From Fulvivirgaceae bacterium JP3-4 (GTDB lineage Bacteria; Bacteroidota; Bacteroidia; Cytophagales; Cyclobacteriaceae): 64,000 bases of DNA. The notes beneath the pieces were generated by a model. That model ran no database searches. It had not been told where the DNA came from and saw only the letters and a list, made by a program, of their open reading frames with translations. Each line of letters begins with the position of its first letter. Position 1 is the stretch's first letter. Below are positions 34,649 to 63,473 of this stretch, piece after piece. A program made the position numbers and the translations under genes. Location of the stretch: assembly GCA_029309925.1 (NCBI GenBank), contig JARKND010000001.1, positions 1,054,001 to 1,118,000 of the forward strand, in the 5' to 3' direction.

Positions 34649-35053
34649 TTACGCTTTCAAAAACTTCTCTGCTTTTTTCTTCACCATGTCGCGGTCTGCC
34701 GTGATAGATGGATCGCTGTACACGTGCTGAGAGATTTCTGCCACTACTGCTTTTTTATAACCAAGCTTCTCAGCGATCTGCTCACAGAACACAATTTCAC
34801 TGCGGAACACCTGGCCGTCCATTTTCATGAGTTGGATCAGGTAGTAAAGGTGGGTGAATTTTTCGTCATTGGTGAGGGTCGCAATATTGTTGATAGGTTG
34901 AGGATTTTTCAACATGGTGTTGATTTCGTCCGTTGAAATTCCATTCGCCTTACCAATCATGTGAATGAGTTTGGATTCACGTTCAGCAACGTTTCTGTCA
35001 CTTGCGGCAAGATTAATGAGAACATTCAATTCCGCCTTTTTGTCAAAAATCAT
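34649..35053 (-). CDS. TerB-like tellurite-resistance/DUF533-type protein
   Basis: A 134-residue all-helical soluble protein. It shows a TerB-type pattern of paired acidic helices: NLAASDRNVAERESKLIHMIG and LMKMDGQVFRSEIVFCEQIAEKLGY, the segments that bind metal in the family. Role unknown; TerB proteins are linked to envelope stress and metal handling. Divergent from the GIN-domain gene. A similar N-terminal domain appears in the ABC fusion at 59.6 kb. Confidence 0.75.
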   Translation of the reverse strand: MIFDKKAELNVLINLAASDRNVAERESKLIHMIGKANGISTDEINTMLKNPQPINNIATLTNDEKFTHLYYLIQLMKMDGQVFRSEIVFCEQIAEKLGYKKAVVAEISQHVYSDPSITADRDMVKKKAEKFLKA

Positions 35054-56222: not shown

Positions 56223-57263
56223 ATGCAAAACCGTCTGGCTGTCGAAGCTTGTCCAAAGAGAAACGTATGGATTGAACTGCGTGACATCGCCATCCTCATT
56301 CTTTTCGGATTTCTCATGACCTTAGCAGGATTGAGTTGCCGCAATTGTCCTTTTCCAGGTAAGGAGTTCTGGATCCTGGGATCATTTACAGCGCTGGTTT
56401 GGGTTGTGCTGTGGAAAGGAAATGATTATCTCGGAGCATACATATCATCGAAGATCTCCTGGTTGAAATTTCCGGTTAAGCGATTTGTGATCGGGGTGAT
56501 TTCCACTTTCGCATTCACGCTGACGGCAATTTACATACTGAGTGCGGTGTGGAAAGCGATTTTCGAGGTTAACATTTCATACGGTGTTTTGTATTCGGTC
56601 ATCATCACGGTCATCATATCCCTCTTTCTGCATGGCCGTGCTTTTCTTCTAAACTGGCAGCAAAGTAAAATTGATGCAGAGCGATTGCAGCGTGAAAACA
56701 TTGCAGGGAAATACGAGGCCCTGAAGAACCAGGTAAATCCACACTTCCTGTTCAATAGTTTGAATGCGCTTTCCAATCTCGTTTATGAAGATCAGGACAA
56801 AGCCGTGAAGTTTATCAAGCAGTTATCCGAAGTCTATCGTTACGTTCTGGACACCCGCGATCAGGAAATCGTCTCACTTGAACAGGAAATCAAGTTCCTG
56901 GAATCATATATCTACCTGCAGCAGATTCGTTTCGAAAACCGGCTGAGTGTTGAATTGAACATCACTGATGGGAGTGTTTATGTGACACCACTAGCGCTCC
57001 AGATGCTGATCGAAAACGCCATAAAACACAACATCGTGTCTGCTGACGACCCATTAAAAATTCACGTTTACCAGGATAACGGTCAGCTGGTAGTTGAAAA
57101 TAACCTGCAGCGTAAGCAGATCCTGGGCGAACCTTCCGCAGGTGTCGGTCTTGAAAATATTGTGAAGCGCTACGAGCTGCTCACCGAGAAGAAAGTGGAA
57201 ATTGTAGATGGCCCCGGGAAGTTTGTTGTAAAGCTTCCTTTGCTCCGGAATTCAAAAATATGA
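56223..57263 (+). CDS. LytS-type sensor histidine kinase
   Basis: A 346-residue membrane kinase of the YehU/LytS group: about four helices (residues ~18-150), a coiled segment and the His_kinase phosphoacceptor NQVNPHFLFNSLNALSNL, then HATPase motifs LIENAIKHN and GVGLENIVKRYELL. Overlaps the response regulator by four bases (ATGA), so the two are a pair. Signals membrane or envelope state; possible link to the TonB operon just upstream. Confidence 0.9.
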   Translation: MQNRLAVEACPKRNVWIELRDIAILILFGFLMTLAGLSCRNCPFPGKEFWILGSFTALVWVVLWKGNDYLGAYISSKISWLKFPVKRFVIGVISTFAFTLTAIYILSAVWKAIFEVNISYGVLYSVIITVIISLFLHGRAFLLNWQQSKIDAERLQRENIAGKYEALKNQVNPHFLFNSLNALSNLVYEDQDKAVKFIKQLSEVYRYVLDTRDQEIVSLEQEIKFLESYIYLQQIRFENRLSVELNITDGSVYVTPLALQMLIENAIKHNIVSADDPLKIHVYQDNGQLVVENNLQRKQILGEPSAGVGLENIVKRYELLTEKKVEIVDGPGKFVVKLPLLRNSKI

Positions 57264-58024
57264 AGATCTTAATTGTTGAAGACGAACCACACGCGGCACA
57301 GCGCTTGCAGACGCTTGTTTCCGGGTTAATTCCCGATGCGGACATCGTTGGTAAAATTGACACGGTGAAAAAATCAGTTCAATGGTTGAAGGACAATCCG
57401 AATCCTGACCTGATCTTCATGGACATTCAGCTGGCGGACGGATTGAGCTTTCAGATCTTCGAGCAGCATGCGATTAGCTCGCCCGTCATTTTCACTACCG
57501 CTTATGATGAGTACGCGCTGAAAGCCTTTAAGGTGAACAGCATCGACTACATTCTAAAACCCGTTGACAGAACTGAGCTGGAAGCAGCGCTGAACAAACT
57601 TAAAACGCTTTCCGGTAACGGTAGCCCAAGTCATAAAGATGTGCTTCATAACATCGGTCAGGCTGTAGAAATGCTTTTAAAAAAGTATAAAACGCGTTTT
57701 GTGGTCAAGGTGGGGGAGCATCTGCGTACGATCGAAGTCAACTCAATCCGTTATTTTTTCAGCCAGGAAAAAGCCACCTTCTGCGTTACGGATGATAACC
57801 GGAACCACATCCTCGACTACACACTTGAGCAACTGGAGGAAATGCTCGATCCGTCTGAATTTTATCGTATTAACCGCAAGTATCTGGTGCGGTCAAACGC
57901 CATTCAGGACATTATCAATTACACGAACAGCCGGCTGAAGCTTGTACTGAAAGGGTCGCACGATAACGATATCATTGTTGCACGCGAACGTGTGCAGGAT
58001 TTCAAGATATGGCTTGACCGCTAG
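57260..58024 (+). CDS. LytTR-family response regulator
   Basis: A 254-residue regulator. Receiver at residues ~1-115 (MKILIVEDEPHAAQRL; Asp in IFMDIQLADG; TTAYDEYALKAF; KPVD) and a LytTR DNA-binding domain at ~150-250 (YRINRKYLVRSNAI, NSRLKLVLKG). Partner of the LytS-type kinase that overlaps it. Binds direct repeats in target promoters; no such pair could be pinned down here with confidence. Confidence 0.92.
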   Translation: MKILIVEDEPHAAQRLQTLVSGLIPDADIVGKIDTVKKSVQWLKDNPNPDLIFMDIQLADGLSFQIFEQHAISSPVIFTTAYDEYALKAFKVNSIDYILKPVDRTELEAALNKLKTLSGNGSPSHKDVLHNIGQAVEMLLKKYKTRFVVKVGEHLRTIEVNSIRYFFSQEKATFCVTDDNRNHILDYTLEQLEEMLDPSEFYRINRKYLVRSNAIQDIINYTNSRLKLVLKGSHDNDIIVARERVQDFKIWLDR

Positions 58025-58033
58025 CGGTTTACA

Positions 58034-58441
58034 TCACCGCGATTTTTTCACCAGTTCGTTCAATCTTTCAATATCGGACTGCTTCAGCGGTTTGGTGATA
58101 AACTGGATCACGTTCTTGTTTTCGAAGGCGAGCTCGCGGTCTTTTGAGCTGTTGGAGCTTGTCAGTACCACAATTCGTGCGGCTTTTCTGACCTTTTCGG
58201 GTAAGGTTTCAAAACTTTGGAGGAAGGCAAATCCATCAACTTCAGGCATGTTCAGGTCCAGGAAGATAACGTCTGGCGGGTCCTGACCATCGATATTGCG
58301 GAGCCAGTTGAGCGCATCGCTCGCAGACTTGTACGAAACCAGCTGGTTGGAAAAGTTGTAGACTTCCAGGAACCTTCGTTGAATGAACAGGTCGATGTCA
58401 CTATCATCGATGAGCATGGTTTTGTTGACCTTGATTGCCAT
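58034..58441 (-). CDS. single-domain response regulator
   Basis: A 135-residue receiver-only protein (Asp in VIFLDLNMPEVDGF; Thr in LTSSNSS region; Lys in ITKPLKQ). No output domain, so it likely relays phosphate to or from a kinase elsewhere. Convergent with the LytTR gene, 9 bases apart, with a short GCGGT/ACCGC stem in the gap. Confidence 0.87.
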   Translation of the reverse strand: MAIKVNKTMLIDDSDIDLFIQRRFLEVYNFSNQLVSYKSASDALNWLRNIDGQDPPDVIFLDLNMPEVDGFAFLQSFETLPEKVRKAARIVVLTSSNSSKDRELAFENKNVIQFITKPLKQSDIERLNELVKKSR

Positions 58442-58653: not shown

Positions 58654-59544
58654 ATGAAATTCAAGCAACCCATTTCGTTCTTTTTTAGTGTTCTTCTCGC
58701 AGCGGGTCTGGCTTCGTGCGCGTCTTCCAGTGAGGATAAGTCAAAAAACTCTGATGAGTTTGACGAGGCAAACAAGTCCCTCAAGAATCAGATCGAAGAT
58801 GTTGTTTACAATATTCCTTCTCCTTCTGAGATCCCATATCTCCTTCAGGCTACTGGTGCAGAATTCAACGAAACACTGCTACACGACCGTAAGAAGGTAG
58901 ATTCTTATAACACTAAGAACGACAAGGCTGCCATGAACCTCGGTGTTTATGTCGCTGACATCGGCTACCTCACTTCATATGATAAAACACAGGACGCCAT
59001 TGACTATCTGACCGCTTGCAAGACGCTTGCTGATAACCTTGGCCTCATCGGAACTTTTGATTCAGAGCTTGGAAAACAATTCGAAGCTAACATTTCTAAC
59101 AAGGATTCACTTGCACACCTCCTTGACAGAACCATCAAGCAGGCTGAGGCATTTCTCATCGATGACAACCGTAACAAACTTGCTGCCCTGATCGTGACTG
59201 GCAGCTTCATCGAAGGTCTTTACATCTCGACAGGTCTGATCAAGTCCTATCCTAAGAATATCCTGCCTGAAGACAGCCGCAATCTTGTGTTGACACCACT
59301 GATGCGCGTAGTACTTGAACAACGCAAAGCTGTTTCTGAATTGCTCAAGATCCTTAGCTCCGTTGAACAAACAGGAAATATCGCGACCATTACAGGCGAC
59401 CTGAAAAATCTCGAGGCTGCATATTCAAAACTTAATATTGAAGAGCAGATCAAGAACAACCGTGCAGACCTGGTTTTGACTGACAAGAACCTTGAAGAGA
59501 TCACAACGATTGTTGAAAAGGTTAGAAAAGATATTACGGAATAG
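58654..59544 (+). CDS. hypothetical lipoprotein
   Basis: A 296-residue lipoprotein (lipobox LAAGLASCASSSEDKS) followed by a helical, acidic domain: charged stretches such as KSLKNQIEDVVYNIPSP and YLTACKTLADNLG. I do not recognise a domain. It ends with a strong terminator and precedes the ABC fusion gene by 104 bases, so a shared role is unproven. Confidence 0.75.
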   Translation: MKFKQPISFFFSVLLAAGLASCASSSEDKSKNSDEFDEANKSLKNQIEDVVYNIPSPSEIPYLLQATGAEFNETLLHDRKKVDSYNTKNDKAAMNLGVYVADIGYLTSYDKTQDAIDYLTACKTLADNLGLIGTFDSELGKQFEANISNKDSLAHLLDRTIKQAEAFLIDDNRNKLAALIVTGSFIEGLYISTGLIKSYPKNILPEDSRNLVLTPLMRVVLEQRKAVSELLKILSSVEQTGNIATITGDLKNLEAAYSKLNIEEQIKNNRADLVLTDKNLEEITTIVEKVRKDITE

Positions 59545-59648: not shown

Positions 59649-62600
59649 ATGAGTGAAGCATTGCTGAAAGCCATTCTCCGCCTGTTTGCCGTTGTTGCGA
59701 AAGAAGGTGAAGTGACACGACAAGAGCGCGATCAGATCAAGAACTTCCTGGAAGAACACCTTAGCAAGGTTGCCGTTGACAATTATCTCAAATTGTTTGA
59801 TGAGTACACCCAGGCCTCATCGGATAAATCAAGTGATGCGGCCTCGATAACTAAACTTTGCGATGAAATCAATCCGCAGCTGACGCAAAAGCAGAAGATC
59901 GTCATTCTTTTAGAACTTACTAGCATTATTCAGGCTGACGGCACCGTGTCGGCAGGCGAAGACAAGCTGCTGAAACTTATCGGTGAGAATTTCAAGGTAA
60001 GTGCCGAAGATGTCGATATGATAAAAACATTTGTCCTGGGAAAGGCGCCATCTGAACTCGATCATGACAAGATTCTCATCATTGATGCTTCGGCAACAGG
60101 ATATCCGAAGGCACGTCACCTGGTCAGACCACACCTCAATGGATTCATTGCCGTACTCTTTCACCAGAAAACTGAGTTGTATTTCATCAAATATTTTGGC
60201 AAGACTGATATCTATCTGAATGGTGTTCCCGTGAAGGCGGGCAAGATCAGTGTGCTTGCTGTGGGAAGTCTTCTGCGCTGGGATAAAGATGATCCTGTGT
60301 ACTACGGACAGATCTTGAATCAGTTTGTGAAGTTCACTGAACACACACGAACATCGTTCGAGGCCTCAAACCTCGTGTTCAAATTCAAGAGCGGGAGGAT
60401 TGGCTTGCGCGATGTAAGCCTTGCAGAAGAATCGGGAAATCTGATTGCATTGATGGGAGGCAGTGGTGCGGGAAAGTCTACGCTCCTGCATGTACTGAAC
60501 GGTTCCGAGAAGCCGGCATCAGGCCAGGTGCTTATCAACGGGATCGATATTCACAAAAATCCCGAAAGGATAGAAGGCGTGATGGGCTTTGTGCCGCAGG
60601 ACGATCTGCTCATCGAAGATCTTACTGTGTACCAGAATCTTTATTATGCAGCGAAACTGTGTTTCAGCAAAAAGTCGGAAGAAGAAATTGACTTTCTAGT
60701 AATGAAGGTATTGGAAGATCTGGGTCTTGCTGAGACCAAGGATCTTAAAGTGGGATCGCCCCTGCAAAAGACCATCAGTGGAGGGCAGCGCAAGCGTCTT
60801 AACATTGGACTTGAATTACTGCGCGAGCCTGCTGTGTTGTTCTGCGATGAACCCACCAGTGGACTGTCGTCACGCGATTCGGAAAATATTATTGACTTGT
60901 TGAAAGAGCTTTCGTTGAAAGGGAAACTCGTATTCGCGGTTATTCACCAGCCATCATCAGATATTTTCAAAATGTTTGACAAGCTTGTGATACTCGATGC
61001 AGGTGGCTACCAGATTTATTACGGAAACCCCGTTGATGCCATCGTATATTTCAAGAAGAGCATCGACATGGTGAACAGCGATGAAGGAGAATGTCACGAA
61101 TGCGGAAATGTAAACCCTGAGCAGATCTTCAACATCATCGAGACAAAGGTGATCAATGAATACGGTCATTTTACAAACGAGCGGAAGATCACTGCACAGC
61201 AATGGAACGACATCTATAAACAGAATTACAGACCATTTGCAGTTGAAAAATCAAATGACCAGCCGCACTCATCGATAGACATTCCTTCAAAAGTAAAACA
61301 GGCGCATTTGTTTTCGATGCGCGACATCACTGCGAAGCTGCACAACAGGCAGTACATGATCATCAACTTACTCGAGGCACCTGTACTTGCTTTTATTCTT
61401 GCATTTATTGTAAGATACTATCACAAGGATGACGTACTGAGTTCGGGTTATCTGTTCTCCAAGAATCTCAATATGCCAGCATACCTTTTCATGAGTGTGA
61501 TCGTGGCGTTATTTATGGGACTGACGGTGAGTGCCGAGGAGATCATTCGCGATAGAAAAATTTTGAAACGCGAGGCTTTTCTTCATCTCAGCCGGATGAG
61601 TTATATCTGTTCGAAAATTTCGATTTTGTTTATCCTGTCCGCGATACAAACTTTCCTTTTCGTGGCCGTTGGAAATTATATTCTTGAGATCAAAGGATTG
61701 TTTTTCGAACATTGGTTTATTCTATTTACGGTTTCATGTTTTGCCAACCTGCTGGGATTGAACATTTCGTCAGCATTCAATTCTGCAGTAACGATCTATA
61801 TCCTCATTCCGCTGCTGCTGATCCCCCAGCTTATTCTCAGTGGCGTGGTCGTTAAGTTTGACAAGCTTAATCCTGCGATCGGCAACACTGCTACGGTTCC
61901 GTTCGTGGGCGATCTGATGGCATCGCGCTGGGCCTTTGAAGCTGCAATGGTGACGCAATTCAAAGACAATCCTTTTGAACGCGAGTTTTATCTCTACGAC
62001 AAAGTGATGGCGAATGCAGACTTCATGAAAGTCTATTTCATTCCGAAGCTTGAGTCGAAGCTTCAGTATTGTCTGAACAACTACAAATCAGGCGATCCGG
62101 AAGTGAAAGAAAACGTGCGGAAGAACCTGGCGTTGATCCGTTACGAGATAGGACAGGAGCTTGAAGCTGTGGGTAAAGATAATTTCGCAACGCTGGACAT
62201 GCTGGTTCCCGAAAAGTTTGATTCAGCTGTGTACCGTGATGTAGCGGCTTTTCAGGAGACACTCAAGGCGTTTTACGTAAAGCGATTCAACAATGCCGAT
62301 CAGCAGAAGGAAAAAAAGATTTTTGAAATGACAAAAACTCCCGAGCTGGAAAAACAATTTGATGAGTTTCGCGAAACATACCACAATGAGACGATCACAG
62401 AGCTTGTGAAGAATACTGCCGAGACCAACCGTATCATTGAGGTAGATGGAAAGCTCATTCAAAAGATTTATCCGATTTACAAAGATCCGGAGCCCGACCA
62501 CATGGTGGATTTCAATGCGCAGTTTTACATGCCCTCTAAGCACTTTTTGCGAAGCAATGTTGATACGTTCTGGTTTAATACCGGTGTGATCTGGTCTATG

Positions 62601-62696
62601 ACTTTGGTTCTGGCCGTCCTATTGTATTTTGATGTATTGCGAAGGATTATAGATGGTATTGGAAACCTGTCGAACCCGTTGAACAGAAGGATGTAG
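59649..62696 (+). CDS. TerB-FHA-like-ABCG fusion transporter
   Basis: A 1015-residue inner-membrane protein of unusual build. Residues 1-130 are helical and TerB-like (AVVAKEGEVTRQERDQIKNF, IIQADGTVSAGEDKLLKLIG); 140-230 resemble an FHA-type beta-sandwich (IDIYLNG, AVGSLLRWD); 235-480 form an ABC ATPase with Walker A MGGSGAGKST (269-278), signature ISGGQRKR and VLFCDEPTSGLSSRD; a Cys pair ECHEC lies around 481; about six membrane helices follow (560-780) and a periplasmic loop (780-990) precedes the last helix. This is the ABCG/White type fused to extra sensors, substrate unknown. Confidence 0.88.
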   Translation: MSEALLKAILRLFAVVAKEGEVTRQERDQIKNFLEEHLSKVAVDNYLKLFDEYTQASSDKSSDAASITKLCDEINPQLTQKQKIVILLELTSIIQADGTVSAGEDKLLKLIGENFKVSAEDVDMIKTFVLGKAPSELDHDKILIIDASATGYPKARHLVRPHLNGFIAVLFHQKTELYFIKYFGKTDIYLNGVPVKAGKISVLAVGSLLRWDKDDPVYYGQILNQFVKFTEHTRTSFEASNLVFKFKSGRIGLRDVSLAEESGNLIALMGGSGAGKSTLLHVLNGSEKPASGQVLINGIDIHKNPERIEGVMGFVPQDDLLIEDLTVYQNLYYAAKLCFSKKSEEEIDFLVMKVLEDLGLAETKDLKVGSPLQKTISGGQRKRLNIGLELLREPAVLFCDEPTSGLSSRDSENIIDLLKELSLKGKLVFAVIHQPSSDIFKMFDKLVILDAGGYQIYYGNPVDAIVYFKKSIDMVNSDEGECHECGNVNPEQIFNIIETKVINEYGHFTNERKITAQQWNDIYKQNYRPFAVEKSNDQPHSSIDIPSKVKQAHLFSMRDITAKLHNRQYMIINLLEAPVLAFILAFIVRYYHKDDVLSSGYLFSKNLNMPAYLFMSVIVALFMGLTVSAEEIIRDRKILKREAFLHLSRMSYICSKISILFILSAIQTFLFVAVGNYILEIKGLFFEHWFILFTVSCFANLLGLNISSAFNSAVTIYILIPLLLIPQLILSGVVVKFDKLNPAIGNTATVPFVGDLMASRWAFEAAMVTQFKDNPFEREFYLYDKVMANADFMKVYFIPKLESKLQYCLNNYKSGDPEVKENVRKNLALIRYEIGQELEAVGKDNFATLDMLVPEKFDSAVYRDVAAFQETLKAFYVKRFNNADQQKEKKIFEMTKTPELEKQFDEFRETYHNETITELVKNTAETNRIIEVDGKLIQKIYPIYKDPEPDHMVDFNAQFYMPSKHFLRSNVDTFWFNTGVIWSMTLVLAVLLYFDVLRRIIDGIGNLSNPLNRRM

Positions 62697-62708
62697 GACT
62701 CATCTGAA

Positions 62709-63473
62709 ATGTTTTTCTTTTTGTCAAAAACGCTTACTTATCTGGTAATGCCACTCACCATTGTGTGTGGTATGTTGATTTACGCGGCAATAACAAAGCA
62801 TCAAAAGAGGAAGAAGATATTTTTCATTACGGGCCTGAGCCTGTTGCTGTTTTTTTCGAACGATTTTGTTGCCAATGAAGTAATGACCGCATGGGAAGTC
62901 GAAGCAAAGCCAATTGCATCATTGAAGAAATATAAGCTCGGCATTGTTCTTACCGGAACGACTATGCACCGGTTTCCCGATGACCGCGTGTACTTTCTGA
63001 AAGGAGCTGATCGCGTAACACACACAGTCCAATTGTACAAGGAGGGGTTGATCAGCAAAATACTCATCAGTGGCGGATCCGGACGGTTGAGAGGAGAACC
63101 GGAGCCTGAAGCGAACAAGTACAGGAAAGTTATGTTGCTGATGGGCGTACCTGATGCTGACATCATTATTGAAAACGAAACGCGCAATACGCACGAGTCA
63201 GCGCTTGAAGTAAAAAAGATGCTGGATCAGCTAATGCTTCGCGGAAGCGATTGTTTAATCATCACATCGGCATTTCACATGAGGAGATCACTCGCATGTT
63301 ACCGAAAAGTTGGGCTTGAAATGGACAGCTTCGCAACGGATTTCTACACCTATCCACGAGACTATCATGTTGATGCATTTGTCGTTCCCCGTGTGGAGGC
63401 AATAGCGGTGTGGCATAAACTCGTGAAGGAGTGGGTTGGATTTGTTGCATACAAGGTTGCGGGGTACATTTGA
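62709..63473 (+). CDS. YdcF-family DUF218 protein
   Basis: A 254-residue membrane protein with two to three N-terminal helices (residues ~8-60) and a DUF218 domain: LGIVLTGTT, RVTHTVQLYKEGLISKILISGGSG and NTHESALEVKKML, then FHMRRSLACYRKVG. Family members (e.g. SanA, ElyC) act on envelope integrity. Starts 12 bases after the ABC fusion stop, so the pair may be cotranscribed. Confidence 0.85.
   Translation: MFFFLSKTLTYLVMPLTIVCGMLIYAAITKHQKRKKIFFITGLSLLLFFSNDFVANEVMTAWEVEAKPIASLKKYKLGIVLTGTTMHRFPDDRVYFLKGADRVTHTVQLYKEGLISKILISGGSGRLRGEPEPEANKYRKVMLLMGVPDADIIIENETRNTHESALEVKKMLDQLMLRGSDCLIITSAFHMRRSLACYRKVGLEMDSFATDFYTYPRDYHVDAFVVPRVEAIAVWHKLVKEWVGFVAYKVAGYI

What the first reader, a model, noticed from the sequence alone, without database searches (positions are those of the whole stretch)
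59649..62696. TerB plus FHA-like sensor domains fused to an ABCG transporter
A phosphothreonine-reading-like domain and a metal/stress-linked TerB domain sit ahead of an ABCG half-transporter with a CxxC pair and a long periplasmic loop. A stand-alone TerB gene occurs at 34.6 kb. A fused phospho-signal-gated exporter would be new to me.
Basis: inference. Interest (0 to 1): 0.6.

Follow-up and report, generated by a model that had tools for sequence, protein, structure and literature searches.

The report
TerB–FHA-fold ABCG exporter linked to SiaABC
This gene encodes an uncharacterised membrane exporter, found in many Bacteroidota, that carries two extra regulatory domains; in the genomes sampled it almost always occurs together with a threonine-phosphorylation switch (SiaABC) and a partner lipoprotein, which suggests, but does not yet prove, that the switch turns export on and off.

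Summary
The ORF 59649-62696 is real: TerB (residues 11-126), an FHA-fold domain (about 140-226), an ABCG nucleotide-binding domain, a conserved CxxC linker, and an ABCG membrane domain with a loop of about 236 residues before the last helix. The layout is not unique: full-length homologues (45-81% identity) form a multi-paralogue family (80 of 80 named hits are Bacteroidota; three copies in the host genome). The FHA match is structural only; Pfam sees no FHA and the pThr-pocket residues are missing. The host genome has no Hanks kinase and no canonical FHA protein, so classical phosphothreonine reading is not supported. New here: one paralogue clade sits in an operon SiaA-SiaB-SiaC-ABCG-lipoprotein-secreted protein, and in 117 genomes of the order all 73 with the ABCG family also have SiaC (2 of 44 without; Fisher 8e-30) and the lipoprotein. 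Two closer relatives break the SiaC rule. Best reading: an exporter that works with a lipoprotein and is gated by SiaABC partner switching, untested by experiment. The window copy lies in a lipoprotein-ABCG-ElyC cluster, with SiaC elsewhere in the genome. Rv1747 is a published phospho-gated FHA exporter, so this is a new variant of a known kind.

The parts
59649..62696 (+). TerB-FHAfold-ABCG half-transporter, 1015 aa
59679..60026 (+). TerB domain (residues 11-126), all helical
   Evidence: PF05099 41.8 bits vs cut-off 24.4; 46/46 homologues; model
60066..60326 (+). FHA-fold domain (residues about 140-226) without the canonical pThr pocket; keeps the second 'LNG' and 'GS' turns
   Evidence: Foldseek to FHA; hhalign register and conservation
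60354..61058 (+). ABCG nucleotide-binding domain (residues about 236-470)
   Evidence: PF00005; invariant Walker A and ISGGQRKR signature
61059..61289 (+). NBD-TMD linker with CxxC (C482/C485; codons 61092-61103) and CGNVNPEQIFNIIE, at the place of the ABCG NPADF motif (placement inferred)
   Evidence: C482, C485, G486, N487, N489 at least 90% conserved
61290..61853 (+). ABC2 membrane domain, TM1-TM5 (residues about 548-735)
   Evidence: PF01061; model helices
61854..62564 (+). large, presumably periplasmic loop before the last TM helix (residues about 736-972), mostly long helices
   Evidence: model secondary structure; poorly conserved in every clade
62565..62627 (+). last TM helix (TM6)
58654..59544 (+). 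partner lipoprotein, 296 aa, invariant lipobox Cys22, no Pfam family
   Evidence: directly upstream in the window's clade, downstream in the Sia clade; family A4
62709..63473 (+). DUF218 protein of the ElyC/SanA kind, 12 bp downstream, conserved neighbour in the window's clade
   Evidence: PF02698 and weak NCBIfam ElyC match below its cut-off
56223..58024 (+). LytS-like histidine kinase and LytTR response regulator; conserved upstream pair in close relatives only
58034..58441 (-). stand-alone receiver-domain response regulator on the opposite strand, conserved in part of the window's clade

Best explanation
The protein is a (presumably homodimeric) ABCG-type exporter of the inner membrane. Its TerB and FHA-fold domains form a cytoplasmic regulatory platform in front of the ATPase, and it works with a lipoprotein encoded next to it. 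In this family export is probably gated by SiaABC partner switching: the SiaB-like kinase phosphorylates SiaC on the conserved threonine, the SiaA-like PP2C phosphatase removes the phosphate in response to a signal sensed by its GAF/PAS domains, and one form of SiaC docks on the TerB/FHA-fold platform and switches the ATPase. Shown: domains, fold, lipoprotein linkage, operon linkage, co-occurrence, conserved SiaC phosphosite. Inferred: dimer, SiaC docking, direction of the switch, envelope-type substrate. For the window copy itself, control by SiaC would have to act in trans, or its neighbouring two-component genes may control it instead.
For: Full-length family in most relatives. ABCG fold. 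TerB in 46/46. SiaC lies upstream of ABCG in 21 of 22 Sia-clade loci of the tree (in the host genome with a gene between), followed in nearly all by lipoprotein and a 140-aa secreted protein; SiaA/B/C identities confirmed by Pfam on L028, SiaA-like also on L087. A second clade has SiaC/SiaB nearby in another arrangement in 5 loci, in three parts of the tree (L089/L093/L112, L099, L081). In the same 117 genomes: ABCG 73, SiaC 75, lipoprotein 74; all ABCG genomes have both. Phylum sample: 4 of 4 ABCG genomes have SiaC. The phosphosite Thr is kept in 27 of 28 SiaC rows near ABCG. The host genome has exactly one SiaC and one SiaB, beside a paralogue, and no Pkinase or FHA. Precedent: SiaC binds and activates SiaD unless T68 is phosphorylated (PMC8457831, PMC7647112). 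TerB is nearly as conserved as the NBD in the Sia, Prc and Bact clades.
Against: G008 has three ABCG copies and no SiaC although 97% complete, and G007 has ABCG fragments and no SiaC. The window copy's own clade has no SiaC beside it in any of about 25 loci seen, and there the TerB domain is less conserved. Genomes are related, so the Fisher value overstates independence. No interface was modelled. No substrate evidence.
Confidence: 0.5

Rival explanations
1. The N-terminal domains are structural: TerB and the FHA-fold domain only stabilise or dimerise the ATPase, or sense a metal or lipid, and the transporter is not controlled by SiaC. SiaABC co-occurs because both belong to the same ecological or envelope programme, and operon linkage reflects co-expression.
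For: FHA pocket lost; FHA-fold domain less conserved than TerB in the Sia and Bact clades; the exporter persists without SiaC in G008; the window clade is not linked to SiaC.
Against: TerB is under strong constraint in three clades; SiaC linkage in both operon and convergent form; co-occurrence far stronger than for canonical FHA in the same genomes.
Confidence: 0.27
2. For the window copy, control is by the neighbouring two-component genes: LytS-like kinase, LytTR regulator and the stand-alone receiver protein, acting on transcription or on the TerB platform, in response to envelope stress together with the ElyC-like protein.
For: HK, LytTR and RR135 precede lipoprotein-ABCG-ElyC in window, L041, L042, L043, L048, L056; RR135 also in L046, L049, L050, L051.
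Against: HK and LytTR are limited to a few close relatives while lipoprotein-ABCG-ElyC is broader.
Confidence: 0.15
3. A true phosphothreonine-reading FHA exporter like Rv1747, binding a pThr peptide in the FHA pocket.
For: FHA fold; exporter fusion precedent (PMC5549992).
Against: No GR, S, H or N(GT) at the aligned places; no Pkinase and no canonical FHA in the genome.
Confidence: 0.05

Closest known systems
Rv1747 of Mycobacterium tuberculosis (FHA-FHA-ABC exporter; PknF, Rv2623)
   Same: FHA-fold domain ahead of an ABC exporter; proposed control of export by a phosphoprotein
   Different: Rv1747 has canonical FHA domains, one of which reads pThr on Rv2623, and no TerB (the latter from memory); here the FHA pocket is gone, the genome has no Pkinase, and the linked phospho-switch is SiaABC
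SiaABCD of Pseudomonas aeruginosa
   Same: PP2C phosphatase, SiaB kinase and SiaC with the phosphorylatable Thr in one operon with an effector
   Different: the effector there is a diguanylate cyclase (SiaD); here the gene next to SiaC is an ABCG exporter
ABCG half-transporters (ABCG1, ABCG2, ABCG5/G8, plant ABCG25)
   Same: NBD-TMD order, six TM helices, overall fold
   Different: TerB and FHA-fold domains in front; a loop of about 236 residues between TM5 and TM6; CxxC linker; lipoprotein partner
TerB tellurite-resistance proteins
   Same: TerB domain above the curated cut-off
   Different: fused to an exporter; no ter genes recognised among the neighbours that were annotated

Membership tests
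ABCG-type ABC exporter | NBD before TMD in one chain | tested here: met
   PF00005 at 253-404, PF01061 at 554-771
ABCG-type ABC exporter | ABCG fold of NBD and TMD | tested here: met
   best 50 PDB hits are ABCG/PDR proteins, E 1e-24 to 2e-19
ABCG-type ABC exporter | export activity, dimer | not testable with these tools
   needs biochemistry
TerB domain | score over curated cut-off | tested here: met
   41.8 vs 24.4 bits; 46/46 homologues match
FHA domain | FHA beta-sandwich fold | tested here: met
   model pLDDT 88.9; listed Foldseek hits are FHA or FHA-containing chains, but E only 0.007-0.13 and TM about 0.5
FHA domain | Pfam FHA score over cut-off | tested here: not met
   0 of 46 full-length; 1 of 56 isolated domains at E 0.015
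FHA domain | pThr pocket: Arg of GR, Ser, His, Asn of NGT | tested here: not met
   hhalign register, low confidence (local E 0.044), plus conservation
Rv1747-type phospho-gated exporter | canonical FHA plus cognate Hanks kinase | tested here: not met
   no PF00069 and no PF00498 in the genome
SiaABC-controlled module | SiaB/SiaC genes in the genome | tested here: met
   one each, beside a paralogue
SiaABC-controlled module | SiaC next to this gene | tested here: not met
   window clade has lipoprotein-ABCG-ElyC instead
SiaABC-controlled module | SiaC binds the effector | not testable with these tools
   no complex prediction on offer
anti-phage defence (PADLOC) | full-length match to a defence protein | tested here: not met
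   only partial ATPase-region matches

The most novel reading that the evidence does not exclude
SiaC, so far known to switch a diguanylate cyclase, also switches a family of ABCG exporters across the Bacteroidota by docking on a TerB/FHA-fold platform, giving phospho-gated export in bacteria such as this one that lack Hanks kinases and canonical FHA proteins; one SiaC may serve several paralogous exporters.
Probability: 0.4. Interest if true: 0.75.

Novelty: new variant of a known kind. Interest (0 to 1): 0.55.

Why it matters
If true, it gives SiaC-type partner switching an output other than c-di-GMP, gives a function to a large unnamed exporter family and its lipoprotein, and supplies a direct experimental handle (siaA/siaB deletions with opposite effects) on regulated export from the Bacteroidota envelope. 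Even if gating is wrong, the co-occurring set of SiaC, exporter and lipoprotein is a well-defined uncharacterised module.

Tried and rejected
Classical pThr-reading FHA: rejected on pocket residues and lack of kinase/FHA in the genome. Sequence matches of residues 1-235 and of the FHA-fold profile to the PDB: nothing credible. Lipoprotein profile against the PDB: only weak matches, E 0.046 and up. Defence system: only partial ATPase-region matches to mad3/mad8/AbiLi. Stand-alone TerB at 34.6 kb as part of the system: not supported. Sigma-70 promoter scan: 12 found, 9.0 expected, uninformative. Literature: no paper held the terms TerB, FHA domain, ABC transporter and ABCG together; the SiaABC papers found treat P. 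aeruginosa, and the two searched for the term do not mention an exporter of this kind. A review of Ter systems recalled from memory is not held.

Full report
OBSERVATION. The ORF at 59649-62696 (+) codes for 1015 aa. Pfam gives TerB (11-126, 41.8 bits, cut-off 24.4), ABC_tran (253-404) and ABC2_membrane (554-771), and no FHA. All 46 aligned homologues match TerB, ABC_tran and ABC2_membrane. The predicted full-length structure (mean pLDDT 83.3, pTM 0.69) resembles ABCG5/G8, ABCG1, ABCG2 and plant ABCGs, with a mainly helical segment of about 236 residues between TM5 and TM6. C482 and C485 are at least 90% conserved.

THE FHA QUESTION. Residues 131-242 fold confidently as a mainly beta domain (pLDDT 88.9). 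The 50 PDB hits listed are, by their descriptions, FHA domains or chains that contain one, mostly at probability 0.93-1.00, though E-values are only 0.007-0.13 and TM-scores about 0.5. Pfam sees FHA in 1 of 56 members at E 0.015. A profile alignment with canonical FHA domains of related genomes is weak (local E 0.044) but places the second 'NG' and the 'GD/GS' turn on each other and puts no Arg, Ser, His or NGT-Asn of the pocket on the family. I therefore read it as an FHA fold that has lost the canonical pThr pocket. The host genome has no PF00498 and no PF00069 match.

NOT UNIQUE. Full-length homologues of 45-81% identity occur in most of 29 relatives, with three in the host genome (C1:1113649 = window, C1:2530242, C1:379729). 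The 80 best named loci are all Bacteroidota; nearest named relatives of the window copy are Chryseosolibacter indicus, Chryseolinea and Pseudochryseolinea. In an even sample of 148 Bacteroidota genomes only 4 have it, in 117 genomes of the window's order 73 have it, so it is common in some lineages and absent from others. I did not test other phyla systematically.

NEIGHBOURHOODS. A tree of 99 proteins has four main groups that agree with gene order. The window group: lipoprotein-ABCG-ElyC-like, in close relatives preceded by a histidine kinase, LytTR regulator and a receiver protein. The Prc group: often near a tail-specific protease and a small lipoprotein. The Sia group: SiaA-like (GAF/PAS-SpoIIE phosphatase), SiaB-like (DUF6272), SiaC, ABCG, lipoprotein, and a secreted protein of about 140 aa, SiaC being upstream of ABCG in 21 of 22 loci; Pfam identities were checked on L028 and, for SiaA, L087. 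A fourth group: lipoprotein, 140-aa protein, ABCG, with SiaC or SiaC/SiaB nearby on the other strand in L081, L089, L093, L099 and L112. The lipoproteins of the window and Sia groups are homologous, with an invariant lipobox Cys. In the host genome the Sia-group copy has SiaA, SiaB and SiaC upstream, separated from ABCG by a gene on the other strand; these are its only SiaB and SiaC.

CO-OCCURRENCE. The same 117 genomes, at least 95% complete, were searched for four families: ABCG (FHA-fold profile) 73, SiaC 75, lipoprotein 74 with one weak, canonical FHA 29. All 73 ABCG genomes have SiaC and the lipoprotein; 2 have SiaC without ABCG (G023, G185); 42 have neither ABCG nor SiaC. Fisher's exact test gives 8e-30 for SiaC and 0.045 for canonical FHA; by genus (45 both, 2 SiaC only, 20 neither) 4e-15. 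Relatedness makes these values too small, but within families f1 and f47 both genes are present in some genera and absent in others together. In the phylum sample all 4 ABCG genomes are among the 8 with SiaC. Exceptions: G008 (three ABCG, no SiaC) and G007 (ABCG fragments, no SiaC). The profile counts any paralogue, so it does not show that the window clade by itself tracks SiaC.

MECHANISM. In P. aeruginosa unphosphorylated SiaC binds and activates the cyclase SiaD, SiaB phosphorylates SiaC T68 and blocks this, SiaA reverses it (PMC8457831, PMC7647112). The authors suggest that SiaC-type (DUF1987) proteins commonly modulate adjacent proteins. The threonine motif is kept here (YFNTASSK/YVNTSSIK; one second SiaC copy has Ser). 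The adjacent protein here is the exporter. TerB is 0.82-0.87 times as conserved as the NBD in the Prc, Sia and Bact groups, 0.60 in the window group; the FHA-fold domain is at 0.53-0.65 in three groups and 0.89 in the Prc group. I therefore place the docking site more likely on TerB. This, the direction of the switch, and an envelope-type substrate are inference. Rv1747 is the published precedent for a phospho-gated FHA exporter (PMC5549992).

VERDICT. New variant of a known kind.

Noticed in passing
L028:3555-3971 (-) and equivalents in 38 loci: A secreted protein of about 140 aa with no Pfam match (tested on L028) sits next to the lipoprotein in the Sia and fourth groups.
   Followed up: partly
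G004:C303:36105-39181: The ABCG homologue appears as two separate ORFs, TerB-FHAfold-NBD and TMD.
   Followed up: no
G209 and G245: 34 SiaC matches each in genomes of 9-10 Mb, which suggests SiaC is a general adaptor with many outputs there.
   Followed up: no
window 34649-35053 (-): Small DUF533/TerB-like protein, TerB below cut-off; no link to the finding seen.
   Followed up: partly
L021:8363-10393 (-), host genome paralogue locus: The third paralogue lies next to a tail-specific protease (TSP_NTD, S41, DUF3340) in this genome and many relatives.
   Followed up: partly
window 63522-63492 (-): Strong terminator-like hairpin (13 pairs) just after the ElyC-like gene.
   Followed up: no
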